Shown here: piece by piece, positions 1-62,800 of the stretch
How positions within the stretch are numbered: position 1 is the first letter of the stretch
How the letters are laid out: the number at the start of each line of letters is the position of its first letter
Assembly (NCBI GenBank): GCA_030435675.1
Contig: CM059621.1
Location: 11,036,001-11,100,000, forward strand
DNA from: Steinernema hermaphroditum
Taxonomy: Eukaryota > Nematoda > Chromadorea > Rhabditida > Steinernematidae
Reading direction: 5' to 3'
DNA: 64,000 nt
The notes under the pieces: model-generated
Told to the model about the DNA's origin: nothing
Seen by the model: only the letters and a program-made list of their open reading frames with translations
Databases searched by the model: none
Program-made: the position numbers and the translations under genes

Positions 1-915
1 GTGGCAGGCGTGTCCCATCGTCCAGCCCGACTCGGACGCCTTTTTCGCGAAGCAGGAGAATCTCTTCAACACTCAATGTGCCAATAAGAACAAGAAACCG
101 CTCAACTGGACCCAGTTCGCCAAGAGAGTCCTCCGGACGAAGGAGCTCTGGAAGGGCGCCAGAAACATTCGGAAGAAGGACAACGAGGGTTTCGGCGACT
201 TTAATGCCGATTTCAAACGTCTTCTTCCGAGGATCTTTGAAACCTCTCAGAGGAATGTCATACGGTAGGTCCTCTTCGATGGAGGAGCGACTGGAGTTTC
301 CAGGATAATCGAGCTCGGGTCCTTCAAAGGTCGGTCGACGATCGAGATGGCGAGGCAGTGCCAGGAGCTGGCAAGGGAGAGCGACAAGGAGTGCCAGATT
401 CTCGCTGTGGACACGTGGCTCGCCTCGCCCGAACACTACGAGGCCGAGAGGGACGACATCAGCAAGTGAGTCCTCATGCCTACTCGCACTCCTCCAGGCG
501 CATTCCAGCCTCTACGAGATCTTCTTGTCCAACATAAGACACGAGGATCTCACCCAGGTCGTCTTCCCCTTCCGACTGACGTCGACGGCCGCCGCCCACG
601 TCCTCCACTGCTACCATATCAACGCCGACGTCGTCTTTGTCGACAGTAATCATGAGTACGATACCGTGATCAGCGAGCTACTCATGTATTACCCGCTCCT
701 GCGTCCTCACGGGCTCTTCATAGGCGACGACTTCCACATTAAGACGTGGCCGGGTACGGAATCTTCGAAGACCTCTTCGATGGATTGCTTTAGGGGTGGT
801 GCAAGCAGTCGAAGAGTTCGCTCAGAAGACGAGTCGCCCCTACGAGGTCGTCAGGAACACGTGGTCGCTCTTCAAGGGAGACGAGCCCGAGAACTATTTT
901 TGGGACAAACAATGA
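1..915 (+). CDS. Methyltransferase family 24-like SAM-dependent methyltransferase, 3' part
   Basis: The 5' end lies outside the window. Exons are <1-264, 304-465, 509-753 and 794-915, with introns of 39, 43 and 40 bp. The joined frame carries a Rossmann-type SAM motif ([14 protein letters not shown], split by the first intron) and a later acidic segment ([15 protein letters not shown]) followed by [12 protein letters not shown]. This order is typical of the Methyltransf_24 class of small-molecule or sugar methyltransferases. The acceptor of each new exon (304, 509, 794) is the one that keeps this motif order in frame. TGA is at 913-915 and a poly(A) signal at 923-928. The first intron's donor lies inside a TACGGTA heptamer. 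The substrate is unknown. Neighbouring glycosyltransferases suggest, but do not prove, a glycan-modifying role. Confidence 0.8.
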
Positions 916-922
916 CAAGCAG

Positions 923-928
923 AATAAA
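923..928 (+). terminator. Poly(A) signal AATAAA
   Basis: AATAAA begins eight bases after the stop codon of the methyltransferase gene. This is close, but plausible for a very short 3' UTR. Confidence 0.45.
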
Positions 929-1030
929 CCGTTTAACTTGGAGTGCTTTTTTTGCCTTTCCTGGGATCGGGAATTCGCAGAATGGGATAAAGGGTCGATA
1001 GAGCTAGTCATATACACTGACCACCATAGC

Positions 1031-1073
1031 GTGGCAGGCGACTCTTCGCGAAGTAAGAGAATCGCTTCAACAC
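1031..1073 (+). pseudogene. Decayed fragment of the upstream methyltransferase exon
   Basis: The stretch beginning gtggcaggcg matches positions 1-10 of the window. It then skips about 30 bases and resumes with the copy of positions 46-73 (cgcgaag..gagaatc.cttcaacac), with scattered substitutions including a TAA where the gene has CAG. It has no continuing open frame. It looks like a partial tandem duplicate of the exon that starts the window, left behind just downstream of the functional gene. Confidence 0.55.
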
Positions 1074-1153: not shown

Positions 1154-2966
1154 TCAGAAGCAACCGTCCCATCTCATTTCAAAGAAAATTCTCTCTGGGT
1201 AGCTGATAACAATATCCTCCTTCAGCTTGAACTGGGCAAACTTCAGCTGCATCTGGTGGCACCGGATGCCGTAGTCCACCACTGGACGGGGACACACCAG
1301 GTGATTGGGGCAGATTCCCCACTCTGGATGGTCGAGCGTGCGCGAGAGGTTCTGATAACAGCTGATGTAGGAGTTTGTGTAGACGAGTTCGGATGGAAGG
1401 TTCACGTAGGTCTATGCAAGCGATGATAGACGTGTGCCCTCAGCAATGGACCTACCGGGTAGAGACCGCTCCGTTCGATGAAGCTGGTGAAGTTCTCCGC
1501 CAATTCCGTTGTGTTTAGTGAAGGAAACAGTTCGTTGACCTGTGATGTCAGGGTGAGTGGTTACAGTATCGGCCCTGATGCGCACCTCTTCGCCGTCGCA
1601 GGTCCTCTTCCCCTCCTCCCTGAAGTGCAAGAACATCGAGTGCTCCGTAGTGAGGAGTATCTCCTGGTATCCCCCGGCGCCCCACCACATCCTGTGGATG
1701 CCGATGCTGTCCACACGAGGTCCGCCCACGACGACGACCTTCGTCTCCCCAAACTTGTCCGTCGAGTGCGTCGAATTCAGAAAGTCGCCCATGTCGAAGA
1801 AGGACGCCTGTTTTGCTGCAAAGAGGAGGGTCGGGTGGGTGTCGAACTAAAACGAACGGAGGAAGTTCTGCACGTGCATCCGCTGGAAGCGGAAGGCGGC
1901 AGCGTTAGGGTACTCCGTCAGGAGGATGGACAGCTCCTCGAAAAGGGTAGAGGCGTTGTGCGGCACGAGCAGTTCGTCCCAGTCGCCGAAAATGATGAAG
2001 TCCGCAGATTCGCGGTACTCGTGCAGGCATAGCTGGTAGACCGGCAACTGCTGGTTGTACTCAGTCTCCTTGTTAGGGTTGTACTCGAGGCCGCTCTTGA
2101 AATGGTTTTTACACGGCTTAACCATACTCGCCACTCACGAACTCCTCGTATCGGACGGCAGGGTGGATGACGACGAGCCCCTTATCCCTATAGACCCTCA
2201 GGAATTCGAAGGCTTCGGAGATGATCGAATCGACGTAGGTGGCGATGAGGTCGGCGCCATAGAAGCGGTAGAGCTCGATGACAGTGAACATGATCTGCCA
2301 CTTGTCGTACATGAAGAAACGGCTTTGACAGACCACCACATCGCGCCGGGTCCGATCTATCGAGCGGTACGGTACCTACAGTGGGTGAACGTCCTACTGT
2401 ATGCCGACCCCACTTTATCCACGATATCTCTAAGAAGCGTGGACCTCGGGTCCACTGAAGAACTCACCCTGACTCCTTTATTTTCGGTGTCATCGTCGGG
2501 TCCGGAGATGGCGAAATCCGTCATATCCTCGACGACGGGGCATTTGACCCGGTAGATCGTCCAGAGACACTGGAGGGGCGCCGACTGGAGCTGGCCGACG
2601 TACTCGGCGCTCTTCAGCACCATTCCTTGGCGGTTCCGCGAGAAGCAGTTGATCATGAATCCCGGAGTCTCTTTGTGCGCGCCGAAGAAGAGCCAAACGA
2701 AGGGGACATGGGGACTGCAAAGTTGAGGCGTTCTTCGGATATGCCTCTTACCTGGTTGGCTCCACATGGAGCGTTCCGAAAAGCGAAAGATGGCCGTGTT
2801 GACGAGCACCCGTTGGCCCGACGAAAGCGCGAAGAATCAGGAAGGAAATGAAGAAGAAGGAGAGGATGAGGGCAAAGAGAGCAGCGGGTTTCAGAAGGAC
2901 AGCCAGCTTCTCCCAGAGGTGCCATTTTTGGGCCAAGTGGGCGATTTTGTGCCGAATTCGCTTCAT
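1154..2966 (-). CDS. GT92 family glycosyltransferase (DUF23), type II membrane protein
   Basis: Start ATG is at 2966 and stop at 1154. A short basic cytoplasmic tail is followed by one hydrophobic signal-anchor (about residues 25-48, ALFALILSFFFISFLIL), typical of Golgi glycosyltransferases. The lumenal domain has GT92 landmarks: VVVCQSRFFMYDKWQ, ELYRFYGADLIATYV, the acidic metal-binding segment FGDWDELLVP, and SIGIHRMWWGAGG. Introns (for example 2751-2715) are about 37-46 bp, and two contain TACNGTA near 2368 and 1562. Alternative splicing choices would break the frame. GT92 proteins of nematodes and plants add galactose, for example to core fucose on N-glycans. The exact acceptor here cannot be told. 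A family-24 methyltransferase lies just downstream on the other strand. Confidence 0.85.
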
Positions 2967-3137: not shown

Positions 3138-6100
3138 TTAGAGATATTCTTGCTTGAGCACCCACATCTTGCTCTCCTTCTCCTGAAAACTTATACGTTT
3201 GAGTATAGAACGGAAGGCCAGCGAGTCACGAGGGGCAACCTTCTCCTTAAAACACGATTACTGTAGAGAGTACAAGACTTAGATTTACCTTAAATCTCTC
3301 TAGAATTTCGGCTGTCGTCAAACGACTTCCATTGTTGGCGAAGAAAGTCCTCAGCTCGTCGGCCAACACCTCGAAGCGATCTCCGGTTGGCTGCGAAGTG
3401 GATGGCACATCCTCCTCTCCTTCGGCAATATCCATCGTCATTTCCTTCCGTTTTCGAATCATGGCAAGCAGCGAGAGTCCCGACGACGGCGCCTCCTCGG
3501 TTCCTCCCATGCCTCCCGAGAAGATGGCGTTCTTCGTTTGATGGTCGTCGGCGTCAGGATCTTTCTCATCTTCCTTCAGTCCGTTTCCAAACGTTTGCTT
3601 TCGCCCGAAGATGGGCTGTACGTCGCTTCGATTCCTTTTTGATCGGACGCTCGCGGCTGCTCTCTTGGCGACAGCATTAGCCTCATCTTCAACCAGCTGA
3701 GAGTCCGGCGCTGCATCTCCGAGGATCTGATCATGGCGGAGCGCCGAGTGCACCCTTGTTTTTTTCAGCAAGTGTGCGAGAACGTAGTCATCCTGAGCCT
3801 TCGAATCGGACGGCGCCTCCTGCTTCTCTTTGAACTTCTTCTGCTTCTTGAGATACGGTATTTCGTATTTTCCCTCAAACAGGCGCTTTTCCTTCTTCTT
3901 TTTCTTCCCAAAGAACTCCTTGGGTATCTCTTTCACCTCTCCGCTCGCGAGTTTCTTCGCCATCTCACGCAACTCCATTCTTCTCTCCTCTGAGAGGCTC
4001 ATCTCGGCGTTGCCCGCGCCCGCTTCAACCTCGTCCACTTCTTCGTCATCCGGATCAGGCGCCTTGTCGTTCGATTTCTTCGTTTCGTCGCGCTTCTTAC
4101 GAGCATTCTTCCTTCTGAACAGCCAACGATAAGAGGCAACCCCTTCTCTGTGGACTCACTCTTTCTCATGCTTGTCGAAGAAGTTCTCCCGATTCACGAC
4201 TGTCGCCCGTCCCGCGAAAATTGCCGCCGTTTCCGTCCCGTGGGCTTTGTCGGTTTTGCTATCTCCTAGCGTGAATAGTTCGTGCAAGTCGTTGGTCTTG
4301 AAGAAACGACTCTGCTTCGCGTCGACAAGCACACGGTTCACCAAGAACTGTTTGAAGATCTGCCTAAACAAGGGACACAACCGGTCTTCTCAAGTTTGGC
4401 AGCTGTACCGGTGATAGATTTTCTCCTCGATAGTGCTACTTGTCAGAAGTCGGTAGATGGTTACAGCGCGAGTTTGTCCGATTCTCCACGCCCGTTCCCT
4501 CGCTTGAGCGTCGGTCGACGGATTCCAATCAGGGTCGAAGATGACAATCCTATTCGCGCCAGTGAGATTCACTCCCAGACCGCCGACTCTTGTGGTCAAC
4601 AGGAAAACAAACTGCTCCGGATCCTAAATACCGCCCTTGTCACGGCTCCTGACGTCGGCCCAGTTACCGTGTTGAATTTCTCTACTAGTGCCTGCCGCAC
4701 CGCAACGTTCGTTTGTCCGTCCATCCGCAGGTAGTTGTACCCCTGGGAAATGACGAACTTCTCCAGAATGGTGAGCATCTGGCGACTCTGTGAAAACAGA
4801 AGAACCTTGTGCTTCTGCTCGTGCCACAGTCGAAGTAAGGACTTTACTACTTGCATCTTCCCGCTTCTGCTGACATGGCCGAAGTCCTTCTCGGGATTAC
4901 TTTCGATGTCACAGTCACCATGCCGGTTTGGTCCGCCGGTTATGAAGTCTGGATGGTTGCACAACTTTCGGAGGGCGATCAGTCCAACAAAAGCGTCCAT
5001 TCGGCCACTAAGAATACGCTTGCACTCCTTGGAATTGATGTAGTCTTCATACAGAAATCGCTGTTCAGCGGTGATATCACAGAAGAGAACCTAAAATCGG
5101 AAACAATTGCTAGATCCTCCTTCATCACGGCGTAGCACCTGCTCCATCTTGTCGGGAAGGTGGAGAACCATTTCCACATCCTTCTTCATCCTCCGCAACA
5201 TGAAAGGATTGATGGCATTTCTGCAGGATCACTTTGAAGGAATACGATTTTGGCGGCACTTACTTCAGAACGCAGGCACATTTGTAGGCAGTTCTGACCT
5301 GGATGGAAGTCGCGTTCGCGTAGCCGCCTTGTGTGATGGGGATGGAGAATTTCTCCGTAAACGACTTCAATGAACCCAGCCGTCCAGGGTACACGAAGTC
5401 GATCAAGGACCAAAGCTCCTTCAGATTGTTCTGCATCGGTGATCCAGAGAGGATCAAACGATGCGCGGTCCTCGCTTCCTTGATAGCCATGGTCATCTTG
5501 GCGTCGGGATTTCTGATTTTGTGTCCTTCGTCCAAAATTATGTAGTGCCAGCCGTGCTTCAGAATCGTTTTGCATTCGTTTGCTATTGCTGTATACGTTG
5601 TTACCAGAATCGAACCTTCCCTAAAAGAACGATTTAGTAACGCCGCTAAAGAAGATGTTTTACTTTCTGTAGGTCGCCATTTTCCTCAAAAGAGCTGGAC
5701 GGTTTCCACGGTACGATCCACTAGCGTGGTAGACGGAAATTCGGCACAGCGGAAACCACTTGTTGACTTCGCGAACCCACTGATGCATCAAAGTGGCGGG
5801 ACAAACGATGAGCACGGGCCCTAGTCCCTCGTATTCTTTCACGGCCGATGTGAAATTTGAAACGGACAAGGAGCGAAGGAAGGCGATGATCTGGATCGTC
5901 TTGCCTAGGCCCATCTCATCGGCTAGAATGCCGCCGACATTTTGTTGGTGTAACTCCGAGAGCCATCGAACGCCGGTCTTCTGATATCTACGCTCACTGG
6001 GTAAGAGAAATGAGAGAACGCATAATTACTTGTACAGCTTGTTCCAGATCGAAATTGGAATCTTGAGACCTGTCTTTGTGATGTGAAGCGCTTCTTCCTC

Positions 6101-6819: not shown

Positions 6820-7144
6820 TTCAGAAACCAACGGCAAAACGGAGCGGAAAGCGCCGACGGTTCGCGCATTGCGAAAAGTGCTAAATCCCGGTCTCGCCCA
6901 TGTTCGGTCCCGCAGATAACCACTCTACGACGGTATTGATGGTTACTGTAAAATTTCCTTCAACATTTCGGATTTCGTTTGCGTTCTGATGGCTCTTGAT
7001 CTGTAGATTCTTCGCTGATTGCGCGATCTTGTGAATTATCTACTTTTGGTGCCGAATTATCTCCTTCTCAATCGTTGCGGCCTAATTCCTCTTCGTCCAT
7101 ATCGATCCCGGCGCCACTTCCTCTGATTCCGACCATAAGTCGAG
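6820..7144. promoter_or_regulatory. Divergent intergenic region between CSB and FkbM methyltransferase
   Basis: About 325 bp separates two head-to-head start codons, so both promoters must lie here or be reached through 5' UTR introns. A TACTGTA heptamer is at 6944-6950. I see no TATA box. Confidence 0.4.
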
Positions 7145-8234
7145 ATGGGAGGCGACTTTCTGTCCCGGAGCTTTCCTTTCCTGAGAGGACTTCGACCTGT
7201 CCAGAAGGTTCTCCTTTTTCTCGCCATCTTCTTCTCCCTCCTTTGGCTCTCTCAGCGTTCACCTCGACGATTCGTCCCCTCCAAATGTCCCGACCGCTTC
7301 GCCGTCTTCCGGAGGGTCGTGGGGAGCGATCTTCTGGACAAGTTCCACGACTACAATACGTGTGTCTACGCAAGGACATTCAAAGCTTCTCCGGAAGAGG
7401 TAGCGACTTTCCGTGGCTCAAGCGAAGAAGCTTTCGTTTAGCTCTGGAAGCAGCTGATCCCCGTGATGGATCAGTGCCGCAAGGACCTTCTTCTGACCGA
7501 CGGAAGTCTCGAGGCCTTTCGAAGCGAAGACGAAATCAAATATCACATACTGCCTAACGAAGGCAGCGAGGTATCATCAAGGAAGGGATACTGTAGGTGG
7601 GTCCTAGAACGGAGGGTGTACCGTTCTCACGGTCGGCATTGGGAAGGACGTGAAGACGGAGATGGGGATCCGGAAGCGTCTTCGGGACATCCAGTGGCGC
7701 TGCAGCTTCCACGGAGCCGATCCGAACGCCCAAAAAAATCAAGAGATCTTCAAGGGTTTAGGCACGTTCTACAACGTTGTGGTCGGCAATGGAACCCGTA
7801 TGGCGCCAAAGCAGAGCAAACTCAGTGCGTTTTTGTGCTTTTTTCGTCCCTCACTCTACCCGTACCCCATAGAATCTTCGAAGCTCGGATACAAGACAAA
7901 GAACGCTCCCCAGGTGGAACTGGTCGACTTCTTTCGGAAGCACGTCCACTCATCTCCCATAGTCGATCAGCTCCTTCTCACGTCGGAGCTCGGCATGGCC
8001 TCTTACTTCATGGAAGGCTCCCCTTTGGACGAAGAGGGAATCGAGATCTGCCAGGTGAACATCGACTTTCACGGGTCGATCGATCGGCGTCTCTTCGCGA
8101 AGATCGTGCGGAGGATTCTGAGGGAGCACCGATGGGTCCTCTTCAAGCCTCTGATTAGCGAACACGTGAGGTTCTTCATGTTAAACATCCAGTCGCCCAC
8201 TTGCGCTGAGAGGTACATTGTCGACAAGTTCTGA
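7145..8234 (+). CDS. FkbM-type (Methyltransf_21) methyltransferase, membrane anchored
   Basis: ATG at 7145 gives an N-terminal basic stretch and one hydrophobic anchor (about residues 20-36, KVLLFLAIFFSLLWLS). Three introns are inferred: donor after ASPEE near 7400; a 37-bp one ending near 7606 that contains TACTGTA; and one ending near 7871. The joined frame reads CTVLTVGIGKDVKTE, then CSFHGADPN, GTFYNVVVGNGT and a conserved EICQVNIDFHG segment. These are landmarks of the nematode FkbM/Methyltransf_21 family. FkbM proteins are O-methyltransferases. With an N-terminal anchor this one probably works in the secretory pathway, perhaps on glycans. Stop TGA is at 8232-8234. The family call is firm, the substrate unknown. 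Confidence 0.85.
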
Positions 8235-8470
8235 GAACACGGACGATGCTACAAAGCCACACACTTCGCCTAGAGAAATATGAAATGGAAAGAGGACCCT
8301 TTGTTTCATTGAATTCAGTGTACTCACAATGTCATCCCCAATTTTCAGCGTGTCAGCTAAAACATGAACGTTCTTGGGAGAACACCTTGTCGAAGATCAC
8401 TACGCACTATCACTACTATGGACTCCTTTATCTGAATTCCGATCGTGAACAGTTCAAAACAAAGCAACAC

Positions 8471-10190
8471 TCAGAAGAAGTCAAAAGCGGACGGGGATGG
8501 GACGTCCATGTCCTCCAACTGCTCTCCGCGCATCATCCGTGGTCCTGGCAACATACCGTACTCCTTAGCGTTAAATTCGCGGTTCGGGTCAAGAGTCCTC
8601 CGTCGGACGGCCTCGTAGACGCAAAAGAAGGTGGCGGTCTGGTAATCCATGTAGAATTTGTGGGCGACCAACTCGGGGCGCGCCAGGAGCCCCGGTAGGT
8701 CGCGAAGCCCATAGACACAGGAGAGCTGGACGAGTTTCCCGTAGCAGGGGCGTCGGTCGGTGAACCACGTTTGGAAGCGAGAGATGTAGTACTTCTCGGG
8801 ACGGTACAGGCCGAATCGGGTCCTTCCGCGATAGTACTCGAGCGTGTCGAAGATTGCCAGAAGTTTCTTCCGAAAGAGGCGGGCATTGAATCCCCCAGGC
8901 ACTTGAAGGTCTGAAGTAGATACGTGTTAGGAACGGGCGAAGGCATCTACTGACACTCGGGGTTCCCCGCAAGCGTGGTCCAAAGGGATTCGTCCGAACA
9001 CTCGGTCTTCGACAAGTAGACGACAAGTTCGGCCGTTTTGCGGTGACTGAAGAAGTAAGTGGCCGACGCTCTGGTGAAAGTCGCCGACAAGCTTGACTTG
9101 AAGAGGGGGAGGGGCGCCCACCGCGTTTGCTGTAGATACAGGAAATGCTAGGGAATTTCCAAGCGGAAACAGACCGTGCGGATACGGTAGCCAGGGAAGT
9201 CGGAGATTCCGGAGTTGAAGGAGCCGTTGAGTGCTTTGAAGATTCTGACCATCTCGAGGTTCGTCTTCAGTGGGAGGTCAGTACCGCTCAGATACTGTAA
9301 AGGGGTCTCGTCAAGTGCTCAAAATGGAACCGACCTGATAGTAGTTCCACTCAGCCTTTAGTTTTGTGAGCGAATCAAGACAAGCGAGAACTCCTTTCGT
9401 GACCGAGTACCCACACCAACTGATGGGAGGGACGTACTGAAACAGGAAAAGTAGGGCGAGCAAACAGACAAAGGGAGTTATAGGAACGTACGATGATGTG
9501 GATGTTCGGAAAGCAGCTGGCGATGATCTTCATCTCCCTCTTAAAAGCCATAGACGCTTTCGAGTCGATCGCAATGCAGAACTGATTCTGAGGCTGATAG
9601 ATGGCGCTCAGGAGGTACAAAATCTAAATCGCTTGAAGACATTGCGCTCAGCCAAACGTTACTTGGACAGAATTGTGGTACAAGAGCATTCCATAGGCCA
9701 GGGGGTAGAGTGCCTCTTCCCGGGAAAGTGGCCGCTCCGCAAACGAAAACATCGACTTGATCGTCTCACATCTGAACTGGACAAATGGGGCACGCTGATT
9801 GATTCCGGACCTGTCGTAGGATGGGTAGATGCTCTCCCACACGAACGAATCGTCGAATCTCCACCGTTTGGCCCTGCGAATGGACTCGACGTTTCCCTCG
9901 GCGATAGCCGGACAATCGACCATCTCTCGGTACTTCTCCAGCGGCGCGAAGACGGCGTCCAAAGAATCGTTTTTGGGAAGAAAGTAGAGATTCTCCGCAG
10001 GGTTCAGCGGAGTGTCGCGACTAGAGTCCAGTGACTGATGAGAGAGCAATCTGAACGGGTGGCACATTGGCTGACGAAGAAAAAATTACCCGATGTTCAC
10101 TAAATATGTCCATGTGGCAGCAGAAAGAAGAAAGTACTTCAAGTACCATGGTCGATTCAGAAGGCGGACGATGCGCCACACTTTTCGCAT
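8471..10190 (-). CDS. Core-2/I-branching type GT14 glycosyltransferase
   Basis: ATG at 10190 gives a basic tail and a short hydrophobic anchor (YLKYFLLSAATWTYL). The next exon follows a 31-bp intron. The joined protein shows GT14 landmarks in order: YPLAYGMLLYHN, LLSAIYQPQNQFCIAIDSK, the YVPPISWCGYSVTKG region, WNYYQYLSGTDLPLKTN, FFSHRKTAELV, DESLWTTLAGNPE and PGGFNARL. GT14 enzymes add beta-1,6-GlcNAc branches or xylose in the Golgi, and the family is expanded in nematodes. The intron preceding YLSGTDLP has its acceptor inside a TACAGTA heptamer (9293-9299). All short introns restore the same frame, so the gene looks intact. Stop is at 8471. It is convergent with the FkbM gene. Confidence 0.88.
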
Positions 10191-52874: not shown

Positions 52875-52880
52875 AATAAA
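52875..52880 (+). terminator. Poly(A) signal between the four-span and Ser-rich genes
   Basis: AATAAA, 46 bases after the upstream stop and 80 bases before the downstream ATG. Confidence 0.7.
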
Positions 52881-52959
52881 GAGATGCTTCCTCGCCCCCG
52901 TTTCCATGTGGGACCCCCGTAGACGTCTCTCTGAAAGCGTCTGCACGAGCTAGACAAAA

Positions 52960-53355
52960 ATGGCCACAGGAGACAGAAGCGCGCGCCATTCGACTCCATT
53001 CCCTGTCCGTGTCGGTCGACCAGCTATGTCGTCCACCATCAGCACTCCTTCGTCACTCGTTTCGTCGGCGTCTTCTGTGGATTCCCCTACCTCGACTTCT
53101 CGGAGCAGTACCGCTTCTCAGTACATCTGCGCTCGCGCAGCGCCGAGGAAGGTTTGTCCCGCTGCATCTGCAGATTTTAGAAATCGTTCTCCCTACTTTC
53201 AGAAGAAGCCCAGTTTCCCGCGCGTTCTCGCCGCCGACCCAAGCGGCCTCTACTTCACCCTGTGCTACAGAAAATTCCGCAAGCGGTGCCTCATCCCTCA
53301 GCCTCTGACGCGCGACGCCCCTCTGCCTTCGGACGACGAAAGCGTTTCCGAATGA
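52960..53355 (+). CDS. Small Ser/Thr-rich protein, unknown function
   Basis: ATG at 52960; a 53-bp intron with donor after ARAAPRK and acceptor at ctttcag is likely. Without it the frame stays open, so intron retention is possible. The N-terminus is Ser/Thr/Pro-rich (STISTPSSLVSSASS). The second exon has KPSFPRVLAADPSGLYFTL followed by CYRKFRKRC and an acidic end, SDDESVSE. No signal peptide or known domain. It follows the four-span gene by 131 bases on the same strand; gcacgagctag six bases before the ATG could be a trans-splice acceptor. A good poly(A) signal follows. Confidence 0.55.
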   Translation: MATGDRSARHSTPFPVRVGRPAMSSTISTPSSLVSSASSVDSPTSTSRSSTASQYICARAAPRKVCPAASADFRNRSPYFQKKPSFPRVLAADPSGLYFTLCYRKFRKRCLIPQPLTRDAPLPSDDESVSE

Positions 53356-53383
53356 AGAAACGCTCCTGATTGCTGCCGATGGA

Positions 53384-53389
53384 AATAAA
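53384..53389 (+). terminator. Poly(A) signal of the Ser-rich gene
   Basis: AATAAA, 29 bases after the stop codon at 53353-53355. Confidence 0.7.
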
Positions 53390-53644
53390 GTTTATTCAGA
53401 GTTTCTGTGTCCATTCGCGCGTCCACTCGTAGTGACCGGTTCGGGCGGCGGAAACTCGGGAAAAACCCGGCGACGTGACCTTTTTGTCTGCGCCTCGAGG
53501 GGGACAATCGGCCCTCGACTCACTCTCGGCAAACACGCGAACCGGCGCCCGAAACGACAAACACAGGCGTGGGGCGCGGCTATCCGGATAGCCTCCAGCG
53601 GGATCCAGCGTCTCGTGACGGGCTTCTCGATTCCAAGTTGCAAC

Positions 53645-55346
53645 ATGCGGCGTCCGCACCACCTCCTCTCCCGACTCCTCGCGCTCGCTGTTCTCGTCGT
53701 GGCCAAGGCCCAGGCCTGCATGGGTGGTGACCAGCAGGGTCTCGCTGATGTTCGAAGTTGGTTACCAATGCCTAAGATCATCTCATTAAGTTCTTTTAGA
53801 ATTCCTCGGAGGCGACATCGAGATCGATTTCTCCTCTATTCCTCTCATTAAATACCGTAACCCTTGCCGAAAAGTTCCAAGATGACTCTTTCTTTTAGCG
53901 AGCATTCTGGGCCAGGTGAAGATAAGCTACGCGTGCGACCTCAATTGTGATAACTTCGACGCCCTTTTCACGGCACCGTGCCGCTGGAGAAACGAGTGGA
54001 CGACCTGCAGTGGTCACGGTGACCAACTCGACTGGGTCCGCGCCAAGAACGGCTGGGGCACCGACGAAGGGTTAACGATCTTCGGCACTGAAGAGCGAGC
54101 GAGTGGGTTCTTCCAGAATGAACAGTAGTACGCCCTCTTCAGGTAGATTCTACATCATGACGGGATCGCGGAAGAAGCTCCCTCCGGACGCCTCGGCTCT
54201 TTTCGTCAGCGACCCTGTGCAGTGCCAGGAAGGCGACGGAATTCTCCAGTTCCGCTACTGGACGAGTCCCGGGACGCGGATCCGCGTCTGTTTCAGGAAA
54301 CCCGGCTTCGGGAAGGCATACGACTGGTGTGCCGCTGACATCTCCGTCGGAGACCCGGGACCCGCCCGCGTCGTCATCCCCGGCTCCATCATGTACACTT
54401 TCGAGGTATGCCGGACTACGGTGTGCCCTAAAGAGAGCGATCTTCTTCAGCTGGTCATCGAAGCGAAGAACTTCAACTACGATGCGTTTGGATTCCAGGG
54501 CGGCGCAGTCATCATCGACGACATCTTTTACAACACCTCCGCCGTATACAACTGTCGATACAGTACGAAACGCTGTTGAGGTCCACGTAAACCCCAGTTT
54601 CAGTTCCTCACGTGGAACCCCTGCCGCAGATGAGCCCTAAGACATGTCAAACAGTGGAGTGCTCCTTTGACCAGGGCGGATGCCTCGATCGACTCTCTGG
54701 AACCGGCTGGCGGATTGGAACGGAAGCCGTCGGGAACATGCACACCGGAATCCGATCTGCCCACGGTTGGAACACTTTCCATTTCACCGCCAGTTTCCCC
54801 CTTGCAGACGGCAGTTTCGGCTACGCTAGAGGTCCCGGGACTAGAACACTCCGGCTAGGGAAGTTCCATATCGTACGGCAGGCGATCCTTGAGTTCTGCT
54901 ACTACGCCTCCTCTCGGAACAGTCACCTCTCCATCTACTCGACGATCAACGGATACAATCGCAGCAGGTGAGTCGCCACAAGTCTCTAGAAGACGATCGA
55001 AGTGTTCAGGATATTCACCTCCGACGAGATCGTCAACCAAACGCCCCAGTGGACCTGTAAGCAAGTGATTCTACAGGAGGGAAAATACGATTCGGTACGT
55101 CAAGAAGCAATCCTATTTACGATGCTTCTCTGCCTTCAGATGGAGTTCCTCGCCGAAGGTCTCTCCAATCAGTACAGCTACGTTGGATTGGACAGCATCA
55201 CCCTCATCGATCCTATCACGTGGAAAGGAATGTGCGCCGCCAAGCAAAGCCTCATAGAAACCCCGACGGTGACAAACGCTCTGTCGATCGCCGAAGTGAT
55301 GGCGCAGTCCCCACAGAACATCACGAAGTGGATCACCCAGGCCTGA
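53645..55346 (+). CDS. Secreted protein with two MAM-like domains
   Basis: Signal peptide about residues 1-23 (MRRPHHLLSRLLALAVLVVAKA). Introns of about 40-60 bp split two MAM-like modules. Module one runs SYACDLNCDNFDAL, WVRAKNGWGTD, DGILQFRYWTSPGTRIRVCF, GGAVIIDDIFYN. Module two runs TVECSFDQGGCLDRLSGTGW, AILEFCYYASSRNSHLSIYS and SYVGLDSITLID. Each has the CxFD..xxC opening, a central AxLxFxYY strand and a late IDDI-type strand. MAM domains mediate adhesion and homodimerisation at the cell surface or in matrix. No membrane span follows the second module. The stretch 54406-54450 could be a 45-bp intron or coding; both keep the frame. The intron at about 53857 has its donor inside TACCGTA. 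Confidence 0.8.
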
Positions 55347-55444
55347 GTCGCGTCGCCTCTCGTCCTTTCCCCAGTTGTTAGTTTCTCCCTCGCAAACGGG
55401 TCCAATCTATTTCAAGAGATCAGTAGTCAAGTGAAAACAATAGT

Positions 55445-56512
55445 TCAACGAGGTTTCTTGGTGATCTTTCCTGGGGATATGTGCTTGAGACGAGAACTGA
55501 AAAGCACCGAGTGGGCCCAGCCAGCATAGGGGCCAAAGAGTTCGAGGTAGAAGTCACCGATTTCTTTGTGATTCTTGTCATTCAGCGCAGCTTTCTTCCC
55601 GTTTTTCGGAGCCAAACTGGGGATGTAGAGAGAGGCGGTGATCTGCATCACGTGCGTGTCCACGGGGACGATTTCATGCTTCTGAAGTGCCATAAGGCAG
55701 ATGCAGTCAGCAACCTAAATGCATTTAGGTTTGCTAGTAGGATGTTTGGTTACCTTTCGACCGATTCCCGGTAGCAACATAAGAGATTCACGCGCTTCTT
55801 CAGTCGACATGCGCGACACTCTGCCCAGCCATTCCTCCCCGCCGTTCTCAAGAAGGAAGGCTACGGACCTCGCAATGTAACCGGCACGGTAACCAAAAGC
55901 GTTCTTGCGGAGAACGGCTTCCATCCCTTCAGAGTCGACATTTGTCAGCGCGTCCAAGTGCGGAAAATCATAAAATATTTCTCCGGTAAGAAGTTCGATT
56001 TTTTCACCGTACAAAGAGCAAAGTGTGTTGACGAGCTCTGTGCAAAAAAAAAGAATAATTATAAGAGCGGCGCCGCATGCTTACTGCTGATCCGTTGGAT
56101 ATTGTTGTTGGCAGAGCAGATAAAGGCGAACAGCGTTTCCAGGAACTGCTGCCTCAGAATCCGAATGCCTTCGAGTTTATCGGCATTGCTCTTCACCAAG
56201 CTAGCAAAATGTTTGTCTTTCTCTGTCCACTCTCTGTAGAGTCGCTGCAGGTTAATATCAAGCTGAAAACAGAATCTAAAAAATAAAAAGAGAGTTAGTA
56301 AATACCTGCAAATAGTCTTTCAAAACGTGCTCGTCGTCACCGGAAGCACGAGAAAAGCGCCCGAGAACGTCGTATTCAATATGCTTTTCGTCGATTCTCC
56401 TGATGCGCCACACTCGATTCCACGCAACGCCAACAACCGAATCGTCATCGTGCTTCACCCATCTAAACGAGCATAGAGATGTTCGTTAGAAAGTTACTAC
56501 ACACAAGATCAT
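55445..56512 (-). CDS. OGG1: 8-oxoguanine DNA glycosylase, N-terminally short
   Basis: ATG at 56512 directly follows cgcag and overlaps the PSTK stop. The first intron (42 bp) joins MIL to WVKHDDDSVVGVAW. The protein has the OGG1 fold: FLETLFAFICSANNNIQRIS, YDFPHLDALTNV, GYRAGYIARS, the HhH-GPD segment LMLLPGIGRKVADCICLMAL with the catalytic Lys, and PVDTHV with the catalytic Asp. OGG1 removes 8-oxoguanine opposite cytosine in base-excision repair. The usual N-terminal strand region before the GQ[ST]FRW motif (about 40 residues) is missing, so this start may be an artefact, or the protein may use a truncated N-terminus. Stop is at 55445. Confidence 0.85.
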
Positions 56513-57264
56513 CTGCGAAGAGCACTCAGCAATCCCTCCGAGTCCCATTCGACAATTCCCTCCGTCTTCATCTTTTCGAAAATGCACTTCTTTCTCGCGC
56601 TGATTATCGACCCATCCAGGCTCTTCTCCGCTTGGAGCAACGCTGTCACAGCCTTCCGCAGGTCGAGATCGAGCTGCTTCCACACGGAATTGTCAGGGAC
56701 GGGCTCCGCGTCGACGATTCGCTTGTGTGGACTGCTCTTCGCCTCCAAAATGAGCCAAAAAAGTAATTCTTCGTCGCCACAGAAGCGAACGAATCCCTGA
56801 GAGGTGAATGGCAGTTCAATGCGCTCAGCGATCTGCCGAATCTGTTCCTCGGATACGTCAAACACTCGCTTCGGTCGAATCCGATTCCTTGCGATCGCTT
56901 CTTCCACGGCACATTCCACGAAGACCCGCAGGCAAGCCAGTCCGTAGGCGCGCGCCATCCGCTCGAAGGTTCGCCGCATACTTCCAAAGTAGAAGACGTC
57001 GTCAAGCAACACGATGAAACGTTGCTGTCCTTCTTCGACAAGACTCTCCACTGCCGACTGAACGCCTCTTTGCCAAGCCTTCCGGAGTACATTTGCCTTC
57101 TCCGAGAACTTTCCTCCATCATTAACGGCTCCTGACGACAAGATGAAGTCATCAAAGGAGAAGACTTGCACGGATCCCACACGATCACAAAGGCGCCTCC
57201 GGAGCTGATTGCTGAGTGTAGTCTTCCCCGATCCTGGGAGCCCCATAACCAAAACCAAAGTCAT
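56509..57264 (-). CDS. PSTK: PSTK-type L-seryl-tRNA(Sec) kinase
   Basis: Single exon, about 250 codons. The Walker A MGLPGSGKTTLSNQL lies near the N-terminus. Later come the DD.L-type acidic block (VLLDDVFYFGSMRRTFERMARAYG), the RNRIRPKRV lid and a helical C-terminal half. This matches PSTK/KTI12-like kinases. PSTK phosphorylates Ser-tRNA(Sec) before SepSecS makes selenocysteine, so it implies a working selenocysteine pathway. KTI12 is the alternative, but the sequence order and length fit PSTK better. The TTTCAG acceptor sits six bases before the ATG. TGA at 56511-56509 overlaps the OGG1 ATG (ATGA). UAP56 lies 323 bases upstream on the same strand. Confidence 0.82.
   Translation of the reverse strand: MTLVLVMGLPGSGKTTLSNQLRRRLCDRVGSVQVFSFDDFILSSGAVNDGGKFSEKANVLRKAWQRGVQSAVESLVEEGQQRFIVLLDDVFYFGSMRRTFERMARAYGLACLRVFVECAVEEAIARNRIRPKRVFDVSEEQIRQIAERIELPFTSQGFVRFCGDEELLFWLILEAKSSPHKRIVDAEPVPDNSVWKQLDLDLRKAVTALLQAEKSLDGSIISARKKCIFEKMKTEGIVEWDSEGLLSALRR
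56513..56519 (-). promoter_or_regulatory. Candidate acceptor at the OGG1 ATG
   Basis: The minus-strand sequence cttcgcag ends at 56513 and touches the ATG. Spliced-leader addition here would yield an OGG1 mRNA while leaving PSTK intact on another mRNA. Confidence 0.4.
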
Positions 57265-57273
57265 CCCTACCTG
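57265..57273 (-). promoter_or_regulatory. Candidate trans-splice acceptor before PSTK
   Basis: On the minus strand, tttcag ends at 57271, six bases before the ATG. With UAP56 upstream on the same strand, it could separate genes of one operon. Confidence 0.45.
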
Positions 57274-57587
57274 AAACTTTGTCCGTTTAGAAGCACAACA
57301 GCCAAGTTCAACTCTCGTCTCGAACAATTTAATTTCGGCATGGTTACCCAAGTACCGGAAATGTAAATATATCAGATACACATGCGTTACAACAGCGGAT
57401 AATTTAAATACCATCAATGAACTGGAGATAGAACAGATCACGAAGACAACATAAATTAGAACAACAGAGATGCAAAAACTGCTCTTTATTGAGAGCGGAC
57501 AACAATCAAACCGAACGTTTATTTAAAGAGCGTACAACAATGAAACCAACATTCCTGCTCTCCATCCAATCGGAGTCTTATGCAGTG

Positions 57588-59099
57588 CGGCCTTCGACTG
57601 AAAATGATGCAATGAGAATTGCCAAAAAACGGACAAGACTTACTGTAGGTATCGACGTTGATTTCATCGGGGAGCTCGGCAACATTAACGTCGAATCTGT
57701 CTTGGACGTCGTTCAAGACCTTGGCGTCGCCTTCGTCGGAAACGAAAGTGATCGCCAGACCTTTCGTACCAAATCGTCCGGCTCGGGCAACCTAGAATAA
57801 GCAAAGAAGTTGAATTCCGCCGGAAAATAGAGGCTTACGCGATGAAGATAAGTGTCCGAGTCTTCAGGCATGTCGTAGTTGAAAACAATGTTGACGCGCT
57901 CGATATCCATTCCACGTCCAAAAAGATTTGTTGCGACGAGAATGCGTTTCTGGAAGTCCTTGAATTGCTGGTATCGGGAAAGTCGCTCTTCCTGGGGCAT
58001 CTGTCGATGAATTGCAATACTCGGGAAGTTTTGCTCAGAAAGGAGATTGTGGAGCGCAGAGCATCGCTGAACGGACTTCACGAAAATGACGACCTGGTTG
58101 AACTCCAGTGTGTCGAGAAGCTCCAACAGCTTCTTGTTCTTGTCTTGCTCACGGAGTTTCACGTAATACTGCTGGAGGCCATGGAGGGTGAGCTTCGCCT
58201 CGTCATCGACGTACACCTCCATAGGCTAAACGAGAACCATAAATTCAAAAATTGAGATGACGTCAACTTACATCTTGCATGAATTTCTTGCAGACCACAC
58301 GCAGCTCTTTAGGTAGAGTGGCACTGAACATCATGACTTGCTTTTCCTGTGGCGTCATCTTCACGATCTCTTGCACATCACGTCGCATATCTGGAGCCGC
58401 TCGCATTACCATAGGTTCATTGAATGGGGAACATACCGTTGTCACCGATCATCTTGTCGCACTCATCGAGGACGAAGAACTTGATGTTCTTCAGCTTCAG
58501 TGTTCCATCTCGAGCAAGGGCGAGGATGCGTCCAGGTGTACCGACGACGATGTGGGGAGGGTTTTTGCTGAGGGTTTCCTCGTCCTTCTTGATGGAGATG
58601 CCACCAAAGAAAACGCCGACCTAAACGTGCAGTGTTCAGTTCCCCGCAACTGTGAGTCACGACAAACCTTGATGTTTTGATCATATTTGCTGAATCTCTC
58701 GTACTCTTTCGAGATTTGGAAGGCAAGTTCACGAGTGTGGCACATGACCAAAACTGACACCACTCCATCAACAGGCTCAATTTGTTGGAGAGTGGCCAGG
58801 ACAAAGACGGCAGTTTTGCCCATACCAGATTTTGCCTGGCAAACGATGTCCATGCCGAGAATGGCCTGAGGGATACATTCGTGCTGCACCTCGGACGGAT
58901 GTTCAAAACCACAGTCGCTGATGGCGCGCAGCAACGTCGGCTTCAACAGGAAGTCACGGAAACCGCTGCTGTGGATGGAGGTGTATCCACCCTTCACCTT
59001 CTTGGCTCCAGCATCTCCAGCGGCTCCATTATCCAGCTTCTGCTCGGTTATGGTCTCGTCCTGCTCCTCTTCGTAGTCCAAAAGTTGATCGTCATCCAT
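57588..59099 (-). CDS. DDX39B: DEAD-box (DECD) RNA helicase UAP56/DDX39
   Basis: ATG at 59099 gives the acidic N-terminus [20 protein letters not shown]. The helicase core contains [19 protein letters not shown] (Q motif), [13 protein letters not shown] (motif I), GTPGR, the diagnostic VLDECDKM (DECD), [30 protein letters not shown] and [13 protein letters not shown]. The stop is at 57588, after a last intron whose donor lies in TACAGTA (57641-57647). UAP56 acts in spliceosome assembly and mRNA export (TREX) in the nucleus and is highly conserved. Six or so introns are inferred; the frame is continuous across each. As the first gene of the minus-strand trio it may drive PSTK and OGG1 if they form an operon. 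Confidence 0.96.
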
Positions 59100-59810
59100 G
59101 TTGAGCGAAGGAAAGGTGTACCTGCAAGAAGACGGAAAATGCTGATTGCAAACGCAGCCCGGCAACAAACAAATGCGAGCGCTATCGATAAGGCAACAGA
59201 GAAACGCGACGTTCGCCCTCAAGGTGAAGCGAAGACTTCAACGATTCGGCACGAAGTTTCTTCCAATTTGTGGCGCCAAGAAGACGAGCTCCCCGGATGG
59301 TTGCGCGCCACAACTGATGGCCCGAACTGCGTGGGACTTATTTGTGGAAACGCGCGAACTTACTTATATGTGCGCCGCAGCTGGATGCATCGCCATTGAC
59401 GCGGCACGAGCGATGCCAGAGCTTGGCGGTACACACAGGCTCCCGCCACGCGTCTCTGACGAGCGGCCGATTCGAAAGCTCTCGTAAACATCAGATGTGT
59501 TTACGCGGGAAATGTTCGTGGACGAGTTGAGAATTTGTGTGTTTCGCGCCGGATCCGCTTTGACGTCAGCTCCCGGTATTTTGCCCTCCATCTGATCGCT
59601 GATGACCTTTGAAACATGAACACAGCATTTGAATATGGGTGACCGATCGGGTAATCGGACGTGGGGTCGTGCATGTTTTCGAGCATACTCCTGCAGATCC
59701 TGCAAGAAACAGTATGATCTACAGATGACGTGCACCTGTTGCACTTTCGTATAAAACTCGTGGAAAATGCTGTTCTCAGGGGCGAATGAGCAAGCTAAAC
59801 GAGTGGCAAT

Positions 59811-59815
59811 TTCAG
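59811..59815 (+). promoter_or_regulatory. Acceptor one base before the STAG ATG
   Basis: The sequence caatttcag is followed by a single A and then ATG 59817. This is a spliced-leader-like acceptor. Confidence 0.5.
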
Positions 59816-59816
59816 A

Positions 59817-62800
59817 ATGTCATTAGATGGCTCAGTAAATCACCAATCGTCCCCAGCGCCTTCTGTCGCAGTAAGTGAAGGCAGTTTTGAACTCTGGACA
59901 TGTTGTTTGAGTTTAGTCAACCACAGTTTCGAGAAGGGGACGTGGAGGCCGTGGCGGCAGAAGAGGTGGAGGCGCCGTCGGAAGAACAGCTGCAGCTGAA
60001 GCGATCACAGATGAATCCAGCCTCTTCAGCATGGTGAAGGGCGGGAGATCTCTACATGTACGTTCATCGCCTGGTTTTGCAGTGTACTTACAGCTGCTTA
60101 GGCTATTATCGATAAATGGATCGAGGAGTATGACCGCCATCCGGACAACGCTCTGGTTCAGCTGCAGCAGTTCTTTGTCTCTTGTTCTGGATGCAAGGGA
60201 GTCATTTCAAGCGTCATGATCCAGAAGATGGACTACAAGTTGGTTTCTGGTCACGTTCATGGTTCACAGTTGATCCATACAGGGATATTATTCGACGATT
60301 AACCGAAGAGTTTGATGAAGAATCTGGCGACTATCCCCTTGTGATGTCAGGCCCACAATGGAGGAAATTTAAGACAAATTTTCCAGAGTTTGTATCGGTA
60401 TTTGTACAGCTTTCAAGCATACAGTATTCCTGACAACTGAAATTGCAGCTTCTAATCACAAAGTGCAAATCTAATATCGTGTTTGATTCGAAAACAATGG
60501 ACGGACTGATCCAGCTTCTGACAGGATTGGCCGACAGTCAAGTACGAGCTTTCCGCCATACGGCAACGTTTGCCGCCATGAAACTATCCACAGCTCTAGT
60601 TTCGATTGCCTGCGAACATGTGAAAATGAGGGAGTTGAACGGGAAGCAGATCGAAACGGAAAAGAGTAAAGTAAAGAAGGCGACCAGCGAGCGAATTCAG
60701 CAGCTGCTCGAAAAGAAGGCTGATGTGAGTTCTTGTATCGTGCTCGTGCCATATACTTCGTTTTGCAGCTAGAGGAACATATTAACGATGTTCGCCTGAT
60801 GATACAGTACGTGTTCAAGAGTGTGTTTGTCCATCGATACAGGTAGGACTGCTAGAACCATTGTTTCGTTATCCAGTTTTTAGGGACATTGTCCCCGAGA
60901 TTCGCGCAGTTTGCATCGAAGAGTTGGGGAACTGGATGTTTCTGTTCCCGGACCAGTTTCTGGACGACAGTTACTTGAAGTATATTGGATGGATGCTCTA
61001 CGATAAGGTTTCACTAGTTTCGAATGTCCAAATATTACCTACATTCCTATTTTCTAGAACCCTGACGTAAGAATCCGATGTCTCGCTGCGCTGATTCCTC
61101 TTTACGAGCGACCAGAATTGGCGACAACACTGGAGCTGTTTACGGCAAAGTTCAGAGATCGTTTGGTGGGAATGGTCCGCGACAAAGACTACGATGTAGC
61201 CATCAAAGCTTGCCACTTGATGACCTGCGTGTACAACATTCTGCCACAAATTCTCGACATCCACAGTTGTGAGCCCATCTACGAGTTGGTGTACTGCTCA
61301 CATAGAGGAATTGCTATTGCGGCAGGAGAGTTCTTGAACGCCAAAGTTTTCTGTGGCGGCGATGACTTCGACCGTAAAAAGCTGCTGAGCATCCTCGTGG
61401 ATTTTTTCATTGAAGGACAGGTACCATCTCTTCGAGATTCATCCTTTAATGCTTGGTTTAGCTGCATACCCATGCTGCATATCTTGTGGATTCTCTCATC
61501 GACACTAACCCGATCATCAAAGACTTTGGTACGATGGGCGAACTCCTTGCCTCCAATGAATGTAAGGACTTGCTTTGTTGTGCTATTGATGGGAATCCAT
61601 TCAGCTGACGGAATTGCCAGTCAACTTATCGAGATCATGTCTTGCGCTGTTAGGCAAGCGTCCACTGGCAAATCTCCAGCCGGTCGATCTCAGCATCACC
61701 ACAGGAGGGGAGGTGTCGCTGTTCCTCCGAGAGAGGCCCGGCTGCTCCAAGAAGATCGGACTAAAATGACCGAAGATTTAATCCCAGTTCTGCCGCAGCT
61801 GATAATGAAGTTCGTTGCCGATCAAGAAGCTCTGGAGAACCTTTGCGATCTCCCTAGATATTTCATTTTGGAAATGTATCTAGCGGGAAGGCAAGAGAAG
61901 GTACGAAATGGGTAATTTATGGCGGAATACATGTGTTTCCAGTACTTGGCTGATCTCATGACCGCCCTCGAGCTGGTCGTCGAACGGCACACGGATTCAG
62001 AACTGCTGCTGGTCGTAGCCCGGACTCTGGGTGCCCTCCTCCAGAACGCGAACATCGCCACATACACGGAAACGGCACGCCATCGAATTATCGATACGAT
62101 TGCCGTGCAACTGAGGGCAGAGATCCAACGTTTCCAAAGCGATATGTCAGTGGATGAAGAAGATTCGGCGGCACTGTTGGCCTGCATGAGGAAAATCTCC
62201 GTTTTCGCCTCGTAAGAGAGTCGCCTCGCTTTGATCTCTTTTAGTTCGTTTTGCTAGGACTCAAGACCTTTCGCAGTGGGACTTGTGGAACCCAGTTCTT
62301 TCTGTTGTATCAGGTGGGGAAGACAAAGTGCCTTCAAGAGATGTGGCAGAGCACGCAGTCCAGTTTCTGTTCCTCTCCTTGAGTCATGACTTTTCACTGC
62401 TCTACACGAAATTGGAAGAGAATCCGGACGAGGATGTCATGGTACCTATTTATTGTCGGACATGTGCATAATCTGGTGTTTTAAGGAGGCCGTTCGTGTG
62501 ATCAGAACTCGCAGAGACCAGTTCCTCAACATTGTTGAGACGATATTGCGAAGTGGAGCTGCTGGAGTGGAAAACGTGCGTTTCCTTTCCGATGTACATT
62601 CCGTAATTAGCGATCTTTAGGCGTTCTTGTGCGTATGCGACCTTCTGATTTTGTTCAGCTGGCGCTTGCGTCAGAGAAATGCGTCCCTTGGCCCGCTTGT
62701 GGTAAACGTCACATCGGACTTGATCCACCAGATGGATTGCTTTGTCGTGGATAACGTATTTGTCGAAGAAGAAGAGGATGACGAAAATGACGACGCCTTC

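What the first reader, a model, noticed from the sequence alone, without database searches (positions are those of the whole stretch)
261..60426. Palindromic TACNGTA heptamer recurs inside short introns of unrelated genes
About 40 copies were found by eye in 64 kb, against about 16 expected for random DNA (six fixed bases). About 18 fall in or on the edge of 30-60 bp introns of different genes. These include the family-24 methyltransferase (261), GT92 (1562, 2368), CSB (3259), FkbM (7589), GT14 (9293), thioesterase (14308), RasGAP (15752, 15906, 17204, 17455), GET4 (28415), membrane protein (34151), acid phosphatase (36048), Cys-rich (50055), MAM (53853), UAP56 (57641) and STAG (60420). With roughly 85 short introns in the window I would expect about one by chance. 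The preferred form looks like TACCGTAA(T/C)C. A splicing enhancer, a site for a genome-wide DNA-binding protein, or the scar of intron-making elements are all possible. No named element is claimed.
Basis: partly seen in the sequence, partly recalled or inferred. Interest (0 to 1): 0.75.

Follow-up and report, generated by a model that had tools for sequence, protein, structure and literature searches.

The report
Palindromic DNA motif in nematode introns
A short mirror-image DNA word recurs far more often than chance in the tiny introns of what looks like a worm genome, and also in its exons and the DNA between genes, which suggests many landing sites for an unidentified DNA-binding protein rather than a splicing signal.

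Summary
TACNGTA occurs 46 times in the window; dinucleotide shuffles average 3.5. In 354 kb of the same genome (apparently a nematode) an ab initio gene finder called 357 short introns; 54 hold or touch a copy. Intron interiors hold 35 copies against 1.4 expected, first of 256 palindromes tested. The result survives masking the motif before gene finding.

It is not intron-only: it is also the top palindrome in coding and in other non-coding DNA. The full element is a 13-bp palindrome, GRNTACNGTANYC: 2,821 genome sites against 202 for the reversed control. One-base variants together sit near expectation. Flank preference inside introns is symmetric between strands, so DNA rather than RNA is probably read.

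Best explanation: a site for an unidentified dimeric DNA-binding protein, weakly selected along genes and densest in short introns. Transposon scars, OVO and PAR-bZIP sites fit poorly; a splicing role is not excluded. Papers, seen in passages, list TACCGTA and TACWGTA in C. elegans without a known factor; 30 published Steinernema motifs could not be compared.

The parts
261..267 (.). TACGGTA straddling donor of intron 265-303 (+)
2395..2401 (.).
2368..2374 (.). TACGGTA in predicted exon 2139-2375 (-), one base from the intron edge
3259..3265 (.). TACTGTA inside short intron 3246-3288 (-)
7589..7595 (.). TACTGTA inside short intron 7571-7607 (+)
9293..9299 (.). TACTGTA straddling acceptor of intron 9295-9334 (-)
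15752..15758 (.). TACGGTA at donor end of intron 15714-15759 (-), intron starts G|TACCGTA; RasGAP gene
15906..15912 (.). TACGGTA inside short intron 15883-15925 (-), RasGAP gene
17204..17210 (.). TACCGTA straddling donor of predicted 190-bp intron 17017-17206 (-), RasGAP gene
17455..17461 (.). TACCGTA inside short intron 17445-17489 (-), RasGAP gene
28415..28421 (.). TACAGTA inside short intron 28381-28425 (-), GET4; intron confirmed by protein alignment
34151..34157 (.). TACCGTA inside short intron 34131-34171 (+)
36048..36054 (.). TACCGTA inside short intron 36024-36062 (+), acid phosphatase; intron confirmed by protein alignment
50055..50061 (.). TACGGTA inside short intron 50046-50085 (-)
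53853..53859 (.). TACCGTA straddling donor of intron 53857-53898 (+)
54559..54565 (.).
57641..57647 (.). TACTGTA straddling donor of predicted 410-bp intron 57234-57643 (-)
36686..36692 (.). TACGGTA in coding exon 36563-36835 (+), codons Tyr-Gly-Ile, inside the stretch aligned to acid phosphatase
15285..15609 (.). three copies (15285, 15424, 15603) inside predicted long intron 15221-15629 (-)
18566..18572 (.). TACCGTA inside predicted long intron 17835-18900 (-)
20785..20791 (.). TACAGTA inside predicted intron 20758-20872 (-)
1562..1568 (.). TACAGTA, called exonic (1456-1815 -) but possibly in a missed intron
   Evidence: missed intron read by eye in the sequence
3854..3860 (.). TACGGTA in predicted exon 3289-4114 (-)
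8554..8560 (.). TACCGTA in predicted exon 8474-8910 (-)
9183..9189 (.). TACGGTA in predicted exon 9175-9294 (-)
37901..37907 (.). TACGGTA in predicted exon 37706-38275 (-)
49925..49931 (.). TACGGTA in predicted exon 49854-50045 (-)
60803..60809 (.). TACAGTA in predicted exon 60769-60842 (+)
6944..60426 (.). 16 unassigned copies starting at 6944, 14308, 19483, 23236, 23712, 24081, 25178, 27118, 27173, 33141, 33317, 41621, 42592, 43202, 49729, 60420

Best explanation
TACNGTA is the strict core of a 13-bp DNA palindrome, GRNTACNGTANYC: two half-sites GTANYC facing outward around one free base. The most likely working: a homodimeric sequence-specific DNA-binding protein, not identified here, reads it in double-stranded DNA, and occupancy along genes (transcription or chromatin organisation) gives a small benefit, so new sites are kept wherever mutation makes them. 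Short introns show the highest density because they are gene-body DNA with little other constraint; coding exons keep fewer, and there the two half-sites are coupled across codons. Shown: sharp over-representation in introns, exons and other DNA, strand-symmetric flanks, the extended palindrome genome-wide, and a higher intron frequency in the four longer stretches sampled. Inferred: the protein, its dimeric nature, the selection, and any role in transcription or chromatin.
For: Short-intron interiors 35 copies against 1.44 expected, intergenic plus long introns 112 against 17.4, coding 57 against 7.5, first of 256 palindromes in each class. In intron interiors nine one-off variants together 33 against 30.2, spacings 0 and 2-6 not enriched. 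GRNTACNGTANYC 2,821 against 202 reversed control; TACNGTAAYC 3,614+3,574 against 505+520. Same +2/+3 C/Y flank in exons and introns, weaker in unassigned DNA. Among 57 intron copies, sense-side NYC 25 and antisense-side GRN 17, which is 2.6 and 3.3 times what intron base composition predicts (my arithmetic), i.e. strand-symmetric. Complete CDS of the 314-kb sample: 43 copies against 10.2 in synonymous shuffles, control ATGNCAT 14 against 16.5. T before ACN-GTA in Thr-Val pairs 23 times, about 10 expected by independence (my arithmetic on the 154 pairs). With the intron content model off and the motif masked before gene finding: 35 interior copies in 337 introns and 0 of three control palindromes. 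Motif introns are not clumped in few genes (p=0.84). Four longer gene-dense stretches 51 of 286 short introns, twelve scattered 10-kb pieces 3 of 71.
Against: No protein is identified and no binding, expression or conservation data were available. Promoter-side DNA is not favoured over other non-coding DNA (8.3-fold at 0-300 bp upstream, 8.0-fold at 300-1000 bp downstream), so it does not look like an ordinary promoter site. First introns carry fewer copies (4 of 76 against 47 of 270, p=0.006), unlike usual enhancers. A binding site normally shows tolerated variants; here single variants range from 0.3 to 2.4 times expectation, the most raised being TATNGTA (1.5-2.4) and CACNGTA (1.2-2.0). Sense TACCGTA 17 to TACGGTA 6 in introns leaves a small strand bias, possibly composition. 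Intron calls rest on an ab initio model without RNA, and part of the sample was chosen next to a motif-rich stretch. Genome-wide the bare heptamer is only twice its reversed control (44,242 against 22,648), and the excess upstream over downstream of TTTCAG is only 1.7-fold.
Confidence: 0.6

Rival explanations
1. An RNA splicing signal: UACNGUA in pre-mRNA is read by an RNA-binding protein and helps splice short introns.
For: Strongest enrichment is in short introns (24-fold). Copies pile up at the donor: 11 at TACN|GTA and 8 at G|TACNGTA over 357 introns; 18 in the donor window against 3.0 in column shuffles over 300 introns. Genome-wide the motif is commoner within 25 nt upstream of TTTCAG than downstream, 1,720 against 1,026. 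Slight sense bias, TACC 17 to TACG 6.
Against: Also first among palindromes in coding and in other non-coding DNA; flanks symmetric between strands; splice-site scores not significantly different with and without an interior motif; interior positions spread over the intron; only 54 of 357 short introns have one. The donor positions are also where GTA already stands.
Confidence: 0.15
2. Scars of mobile or intron-making elements, for example TA-CNG-TA excision footprints of a Tc1/mariner element or remnants of introners.
For: TACWGTA is the Sleeping Beauty excision footprint (PMC10138897, passages). The weak mutated halo would fit recent scars.
Against: Among 499 pairs of copies 40-3000 bp apart, terminal-repeat similarity is no better than in random pairs (best 12 of 20 in both). 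54 motif introns share no match of 12 bases or more once the heptamer is masked. A 5-bp scar would break reading frames, yet coding is enriched and one copy lies in aligned acid phosphatase coding. C/G-centred copies outnumber A/T-centred ones (117 to 70 of 187).
Confidence: 0.07
3. A mutational or repair bias (biased gene conversion or a DNA-modifying enzyme) favours the word without any benefit to the host.
For: Enrichment in every sequence class and a weak halo.
Against: Sites are sparser near a chromosome end, where nematode recombination is usually highest (recalled, not tested here): the first 3.04 Mb of contig C1 holds 50 sites of GRNTACNGTANYC, 16.5 per Mb against 31 per Mb genome-wide (my arithmetic). 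No enzyme with this specificity is known to me.
Confidence: 0.1
4. A site of an OVO/OVOL zinc finger or of a PAR-type bZIP (TTAC half-sites).
For: Drosophila OVO ChIP peaks include a derivative motif TTACSGTAA in 5% of sequences (PMC10705541, passages). The PAR-bZIP half-site RTTAC/GTAAY (recalled) resembles one half.
Against: TTACNGTAA is hardly enriched, 2,850 against 2,519 reversed control. AACNGTA, which the OVO core TAACNGT needs, is 0.88, 1.08 and 0.78 times expectation.
Confidence: 0.05

Closest known systems
TACCGTA, 'Unknown site', conserved upstream of C. elegans and C. briggsae genes (FastCompare, PMC551538, table and text passages)
   Same: Same heptamer with C centre, in nematodes, no known factor, upstream/coding ratio 2.23.
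   Different: Described in 2-kb upstream regions with a 0-500 bp window; the passages seen do not treat introns, exons or the extended palindrome.
TACWGTA palindrome beside the 12-5/12-0 motif pair in C. elegans ribosomal protein gene promoters (PMC3575287, passages)
   Same: Palindromic TAC-N-GTA with one central base, beside regulatory motifs; no factor named for it in the passages.
   Different: W centre only, tied to a promoter motif pair (20 of 42 pairs); here all four centres, C/G commoner, and no promoter preference.
30 conserved non-coding motifs of Steinernema, searched within 3 kb or in introns of genes (PMC4578762, passages)
   Same: Same presumed genus and partly introns; this motif could be among them.
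   Different: Motif letters are in supplements that could not be opened, so sameness is untested.
OVO binding motif TAACNGT and derivative TTACSGTAA (PMC10705541, passages)
   Same: Shared ACNGT core; one derivative contains TACSGTA.
   Different: Flanks differ: here neither AACNGTA nor TTACNGTAA is enriched.
HIM-17-bound m1/m2 pair in CERP2/CELE2-derived germline promoters (PMC9757741, passages)
   Same: Nematode motif recurring thousands of times and associated with a THAP-domain DNA-binding protein.
   Different: Carried by transposon copies and promoters; here no shared element around the copies. Motif letters were not in the passages seen.
PATCs, periodic A/T clusters in C. elegans introns (recalled, not looked up)
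   Same: A DNA-level signal spread over introns of many genes.
   Different: Here a discrete 13-bp palindrome, not phased A/T runs, found also in exons.

Membership tests
Palindromic DNA-protein binding site (dimer) | Over-represented on double-stranded DNA independent of transcript strand | tested here: met
   Flank preference in introns alike on both strands; enriched in all classes
Palindromic DNA-protein binding site (dimer) | Fixed spacing between half-sites and coupled half-sites | tested here: met
   Gap 1 stands out; other gaps 0-6 at most 1.6-fold (coding gap 2, 26 against 15.9); half-sites coupled in Thr-Val codons
Palindromic DNA-protein binding site (dimer) | A protein that binds it | not testable with these tools
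   No binding data
Intronic splicing enhancer | Restricted to or strongly oriented in transcribed introns | tested here: not met
   Also top palindrome in coding and other DNA; flanks symmetric
Intronic splicing enhancer | Compensates weak splice sites | tested here: not met
   36 interior-motif introns against 304 without: donor mean 5.03 against 4.57 (p=0.07), acceptor 5.49 against 5.59 (p=0.49)
Tc1/mariner excision footprint | Element with matching terminal repeats in the genome | tested here: inconclusive
   None among 499 pairs in 354 kb; the whole genome was not searched for this
Tc1/mariner excision footprint | Absent from reading frames because of frameshift | tested here: not met
   Coding 43 copies against 10.2
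Introner element | Introns share sequence beyond the signal | tested here: not met
   0 matches of 12 bases or more after masking, 54 introns
OVO/OVOL site | TAACNGT core enriched | tested here: not met
   AACNGTA at 0.78-1.08 of expectation
PAR-bZIP or OVO derivative TTACNGTAA | T/A flanks preferred on both sides | tested here: not met
   2,850 against 2,519 control
HIM-17 m1/m2 site | m1 and m2 motifs 10-30 bp apart | not tested
   Motif letters not in the passages seen

The most novel reading that the evidence does not exclude
The genome carries a sequence-encoded gene-body mark: some 22,000 copies of one exact palindrome above its reversed control, perhaps 36,000 if the Markov expectation of the sample held everywhere (my extrapolation), kept by weak selection in introns, between genes and across codons, densest in gene-rich regions and read by a dedicated DNA-binding protein that organises transcribed chromatin. 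No such palindromic gene-body mark is known to me in animals.
Probability: 0.25. Interest if true: 0.8.

Novelty: new variant of a known kind. Interest (0 to 1): 0.6.

Why it matters
In this sample no other of 256 palindromes comes near: about 24 times expectation in short introns, the next at z=3.5. A 13-bp palindrome gives a ready probe to fish out the protein, and many natural sites in introns, codons and intergenic DNA allow direct tests of whether an animal carries a sequence-coded signal along gene bodies. It could also give a function to sites listed without a factor in C. elegans papers of 2005 and 2012 (PMC551538, PMC3575287, passages).

Tried and rejected
Chance or composition: rejected. 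Circularity of the gene finder: rejected by switching the intron content model off, with and without masking the motif. Special clustering: pairs with a gap of at most 30 bp number 1,256 against about 669 by Poisson, control 299 against about 175 (expectations are my arithmetic), a similar ratio. Paralogue conservation: only two aligned copy pairs, both kept; too few. One DNA search for paralogues of the window gene at 7145-8234 found only itself. A search of solved structures with a recalled OVO zinc-finger stretch listed 60 of 95 matches, none named OVO. No Rfam match at gathering score in the window.

Papers. Motif letters were absent from the passages on LIN-15B, HIM-17 and germline promoters. 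'TACBGTA', a spelling I recalled, found no paper. Six degenerate spellings found 7 papers, 5 listed. TACGGTA with nematode found 64 papers, 20 listed; one of them opened for the word had none in its main text. TACCGTA with intron and motif found 92 papers, 12 listed, one opened. PMC4039745 on C. elegans intronic motifs does not name this one in the passages seen. PMC12629237 was seen in passages only, for the species. PMC3246208 is not held. The genome-wide intron-bracket test is incomplete: only the CATNATG control was answered (8+8 matches), so it gives no comparison.


Full report
Setting. The window is bases 11,036,001-11,100,000 of contig C1 in a 90.6-Mb, 60-contig genome with five contigs of 16.7-18.4 Mb. 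The size and number of large contigs fit Steinernema hermaphroditum; that identification is recalled, not tested.

The count. TACNGTA occurs 46 times in the window, against a mean of 3.47 and a maximum of 10 in 100 dinucleotide shuffles. Genome-wide it occurs 44,242 times, against 22,648 for the same pattern read backwards. The tool gave me 290 kb outside the window, 354 kb in all. The last 40 kb were chosen next to stretches already seen, one of them (L021) motif-rich, so intron frequencies are not a genome average.

Introns. I wrote a semi-Markov gene finder, trained on the sample itself. It called 434 introns, 357 of them at most 70 bp. 54 of the 357 contain or touch a copy: 14 of 90 in the window, 40 of 267 outside (and subtraction). 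With first and last bases trimmed, short introns hold 35 copies against 1.44 expected from a second-order Markov model. TACNGTA has z=28; the next of the 256 palindromes with gaps of 0-3 has z=3.5. Two motif introns were checked against known proteins: the spliced GET4 and acid phosphatase proteins align without a break at the motif intron.

Not only introns. In intergenic plus long-intron DNA there are 112 copies against 17.4, and in spliced coding sequence 57 against 7.5, again first of 256. A stricter coding control, shuffling synonymous codons within each gene, gives 43 against 10.2 on the 314-kb sample, while ATGNCAT is at expectation, 14 against 16.5. The coding density does not fall when only stretches of high local coding score are kept, 0.44 to 0.52 per kb. 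In 154 Thr-Val codon pairs a preceding T and a GTA codon go together 23 times where independence predicts about 10 (my arithmetic). Missed introns account for few of these copies, though 1562 may be one.

The element. The flanks add C/Y at +2 and +3, mirrored on the other side, in exons and introns and more weakly in unassigned DNA (its classes put some minus-strand donor copies with exons). GRNTACNGTANYC occurs 2,821 times, against 202 for the reversed control. The T/A flanks are not preferred: TTACNGTAA 2,850 against 2,519. The nine one-off variants together are at expectation in introns (33 against 30.2) and coding (232 against 225.6) and slightly above in other DNA (579 against 513). Single variants range from 0.3 to 2.4-fold, TATNGTA (1.5-2.4) and CACNGTA (1.2-2.0) being raised in all three. 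Other gaps between TAC and GTA are not enriched in introns and reach at most 1.6-fold elsewhere (coding gap 2, 26 against 15.9).

DNA or RNA. The heptamer is its own reverse complement up to its centre, so strand must be judged from flanks. Among 57 intron copies the sense-side flank NYC is present in 25 and the antisense-side flank GRN in 17, 2.6 and 3.3 times what intron composition predicts, so the preference is symmetric. Splice-site scores do not differ significantly. These points favour double-stranded DNA. Against this, copies are frequent at donors (11 at TACN|GTA, 8 at G|TACNGTA; 18 against 3.0 in column shuffles), commoner upstream than downstream of TTTCAG genome-wide (1,720 against 1,026), and show a small sense bias of TACCGTA (17 to 6). 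The donor positions are partly where GTA already exists.

Distribution. Motif introns are not concentrated in few genes (p=0.84). Copies are even along genes, rarer in first introns (4 of 76 against 47 of 270, p=0.006), and correlate with GC (rho 0.42 with exon GC in 57 genes; 0.35 with GC3 in 77 genes). Four longer stretches have 51 of 286 short introns with a copy, twelve scattered 10-kb pieces 3 of 71 (p=0.003); one of the four was extended because it was motif-rich. The first 3.04 Mb of C1 holds 50 of the 13-mers, about half the genome-average density. Observed/expected is 8.3 at 0-300 bp upstream of genes, 6.9 at 300-1000, 4.6 and 8.0 downstream, 7.9 in long introns and 24.3 in short ones.

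Origin tests. Terminal-repeat similarity among 499 pairs of copies is no better than in random pairs, and motif introns share no match of 12 bases once the heptamer is masked. A Sleeping Beauty footprint is TACWGTA (PMC10138897, passages), but here C/G centres prevail, 117 of 187, and coding sequence is not spared.

Literature. TACCGTA is listed as a conserved unknown site upstream of Caenorhabditis genes (PMC551538, passages), and TACWGTA beside a promoter motif pair in C. elegans (PMC3575287, passages). Drosophila OVO peaks contain TTACSGTAA (PMC10705541, passages), but the flank tests here do not fit OVO. PMC4578762 (passages) reports 30 motifs in conserved non-coding DNA of Steinernema, introns included; their letters were not in the text, so this motif may be one of them. 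I found no description of the motif in introns in the listings; several of those listings were capped, most papers were not opened, the library is open-access only, and supplements could not be read.

Verdict. It is best read as a genome-wide DNA site for an unidentified dimeric protein, favoured along genes and most visible in short introns. The protein, the selection and the function are inference. Copies listed as unassigned may include missed introns and untranslated regions.

Noticed in passing
314-kb sample (window and L001-L025): Predicted introns peak sharply at 40-50 bp, with T at acceptor position -5 in 396 of 429.
   Followed up: partly
354-kb sample: First introns carry the motif less often than later ones (4 of 76 against 47 of 270, p=0.006); unexplained.
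   Followed up: partly
164 kb contiguous from the window onward: Of 47 motif pairs within 300 bp, 26 are 110-190 bp apart (recounted; my note said 27), perhaps intron-to-intron spacing but also close to a nucleosome repeat.
   Followed up: no
354-kb sample, intergenic and long-intron DNA: Other palindromes are over-represented too: GGCGCC, CAGCTG, CGATCG, TAATTA, GACGTC (z 7-10).
   Followed up: no
   Followed up: no
   Followed up: no
L002 about 7989-10000 running into L003: One predicted gene has the motif in 4 of 8 short introns, two of them with two copies each.
   Followed up: no
C1 first Mb (listing): Near-identical copies such as TACGGTAGGAGATGAGCGTTTCAG recur at 335262, 349258 and 354697, so some copies near the end of C1 belong to repeats.
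   Followed up: no
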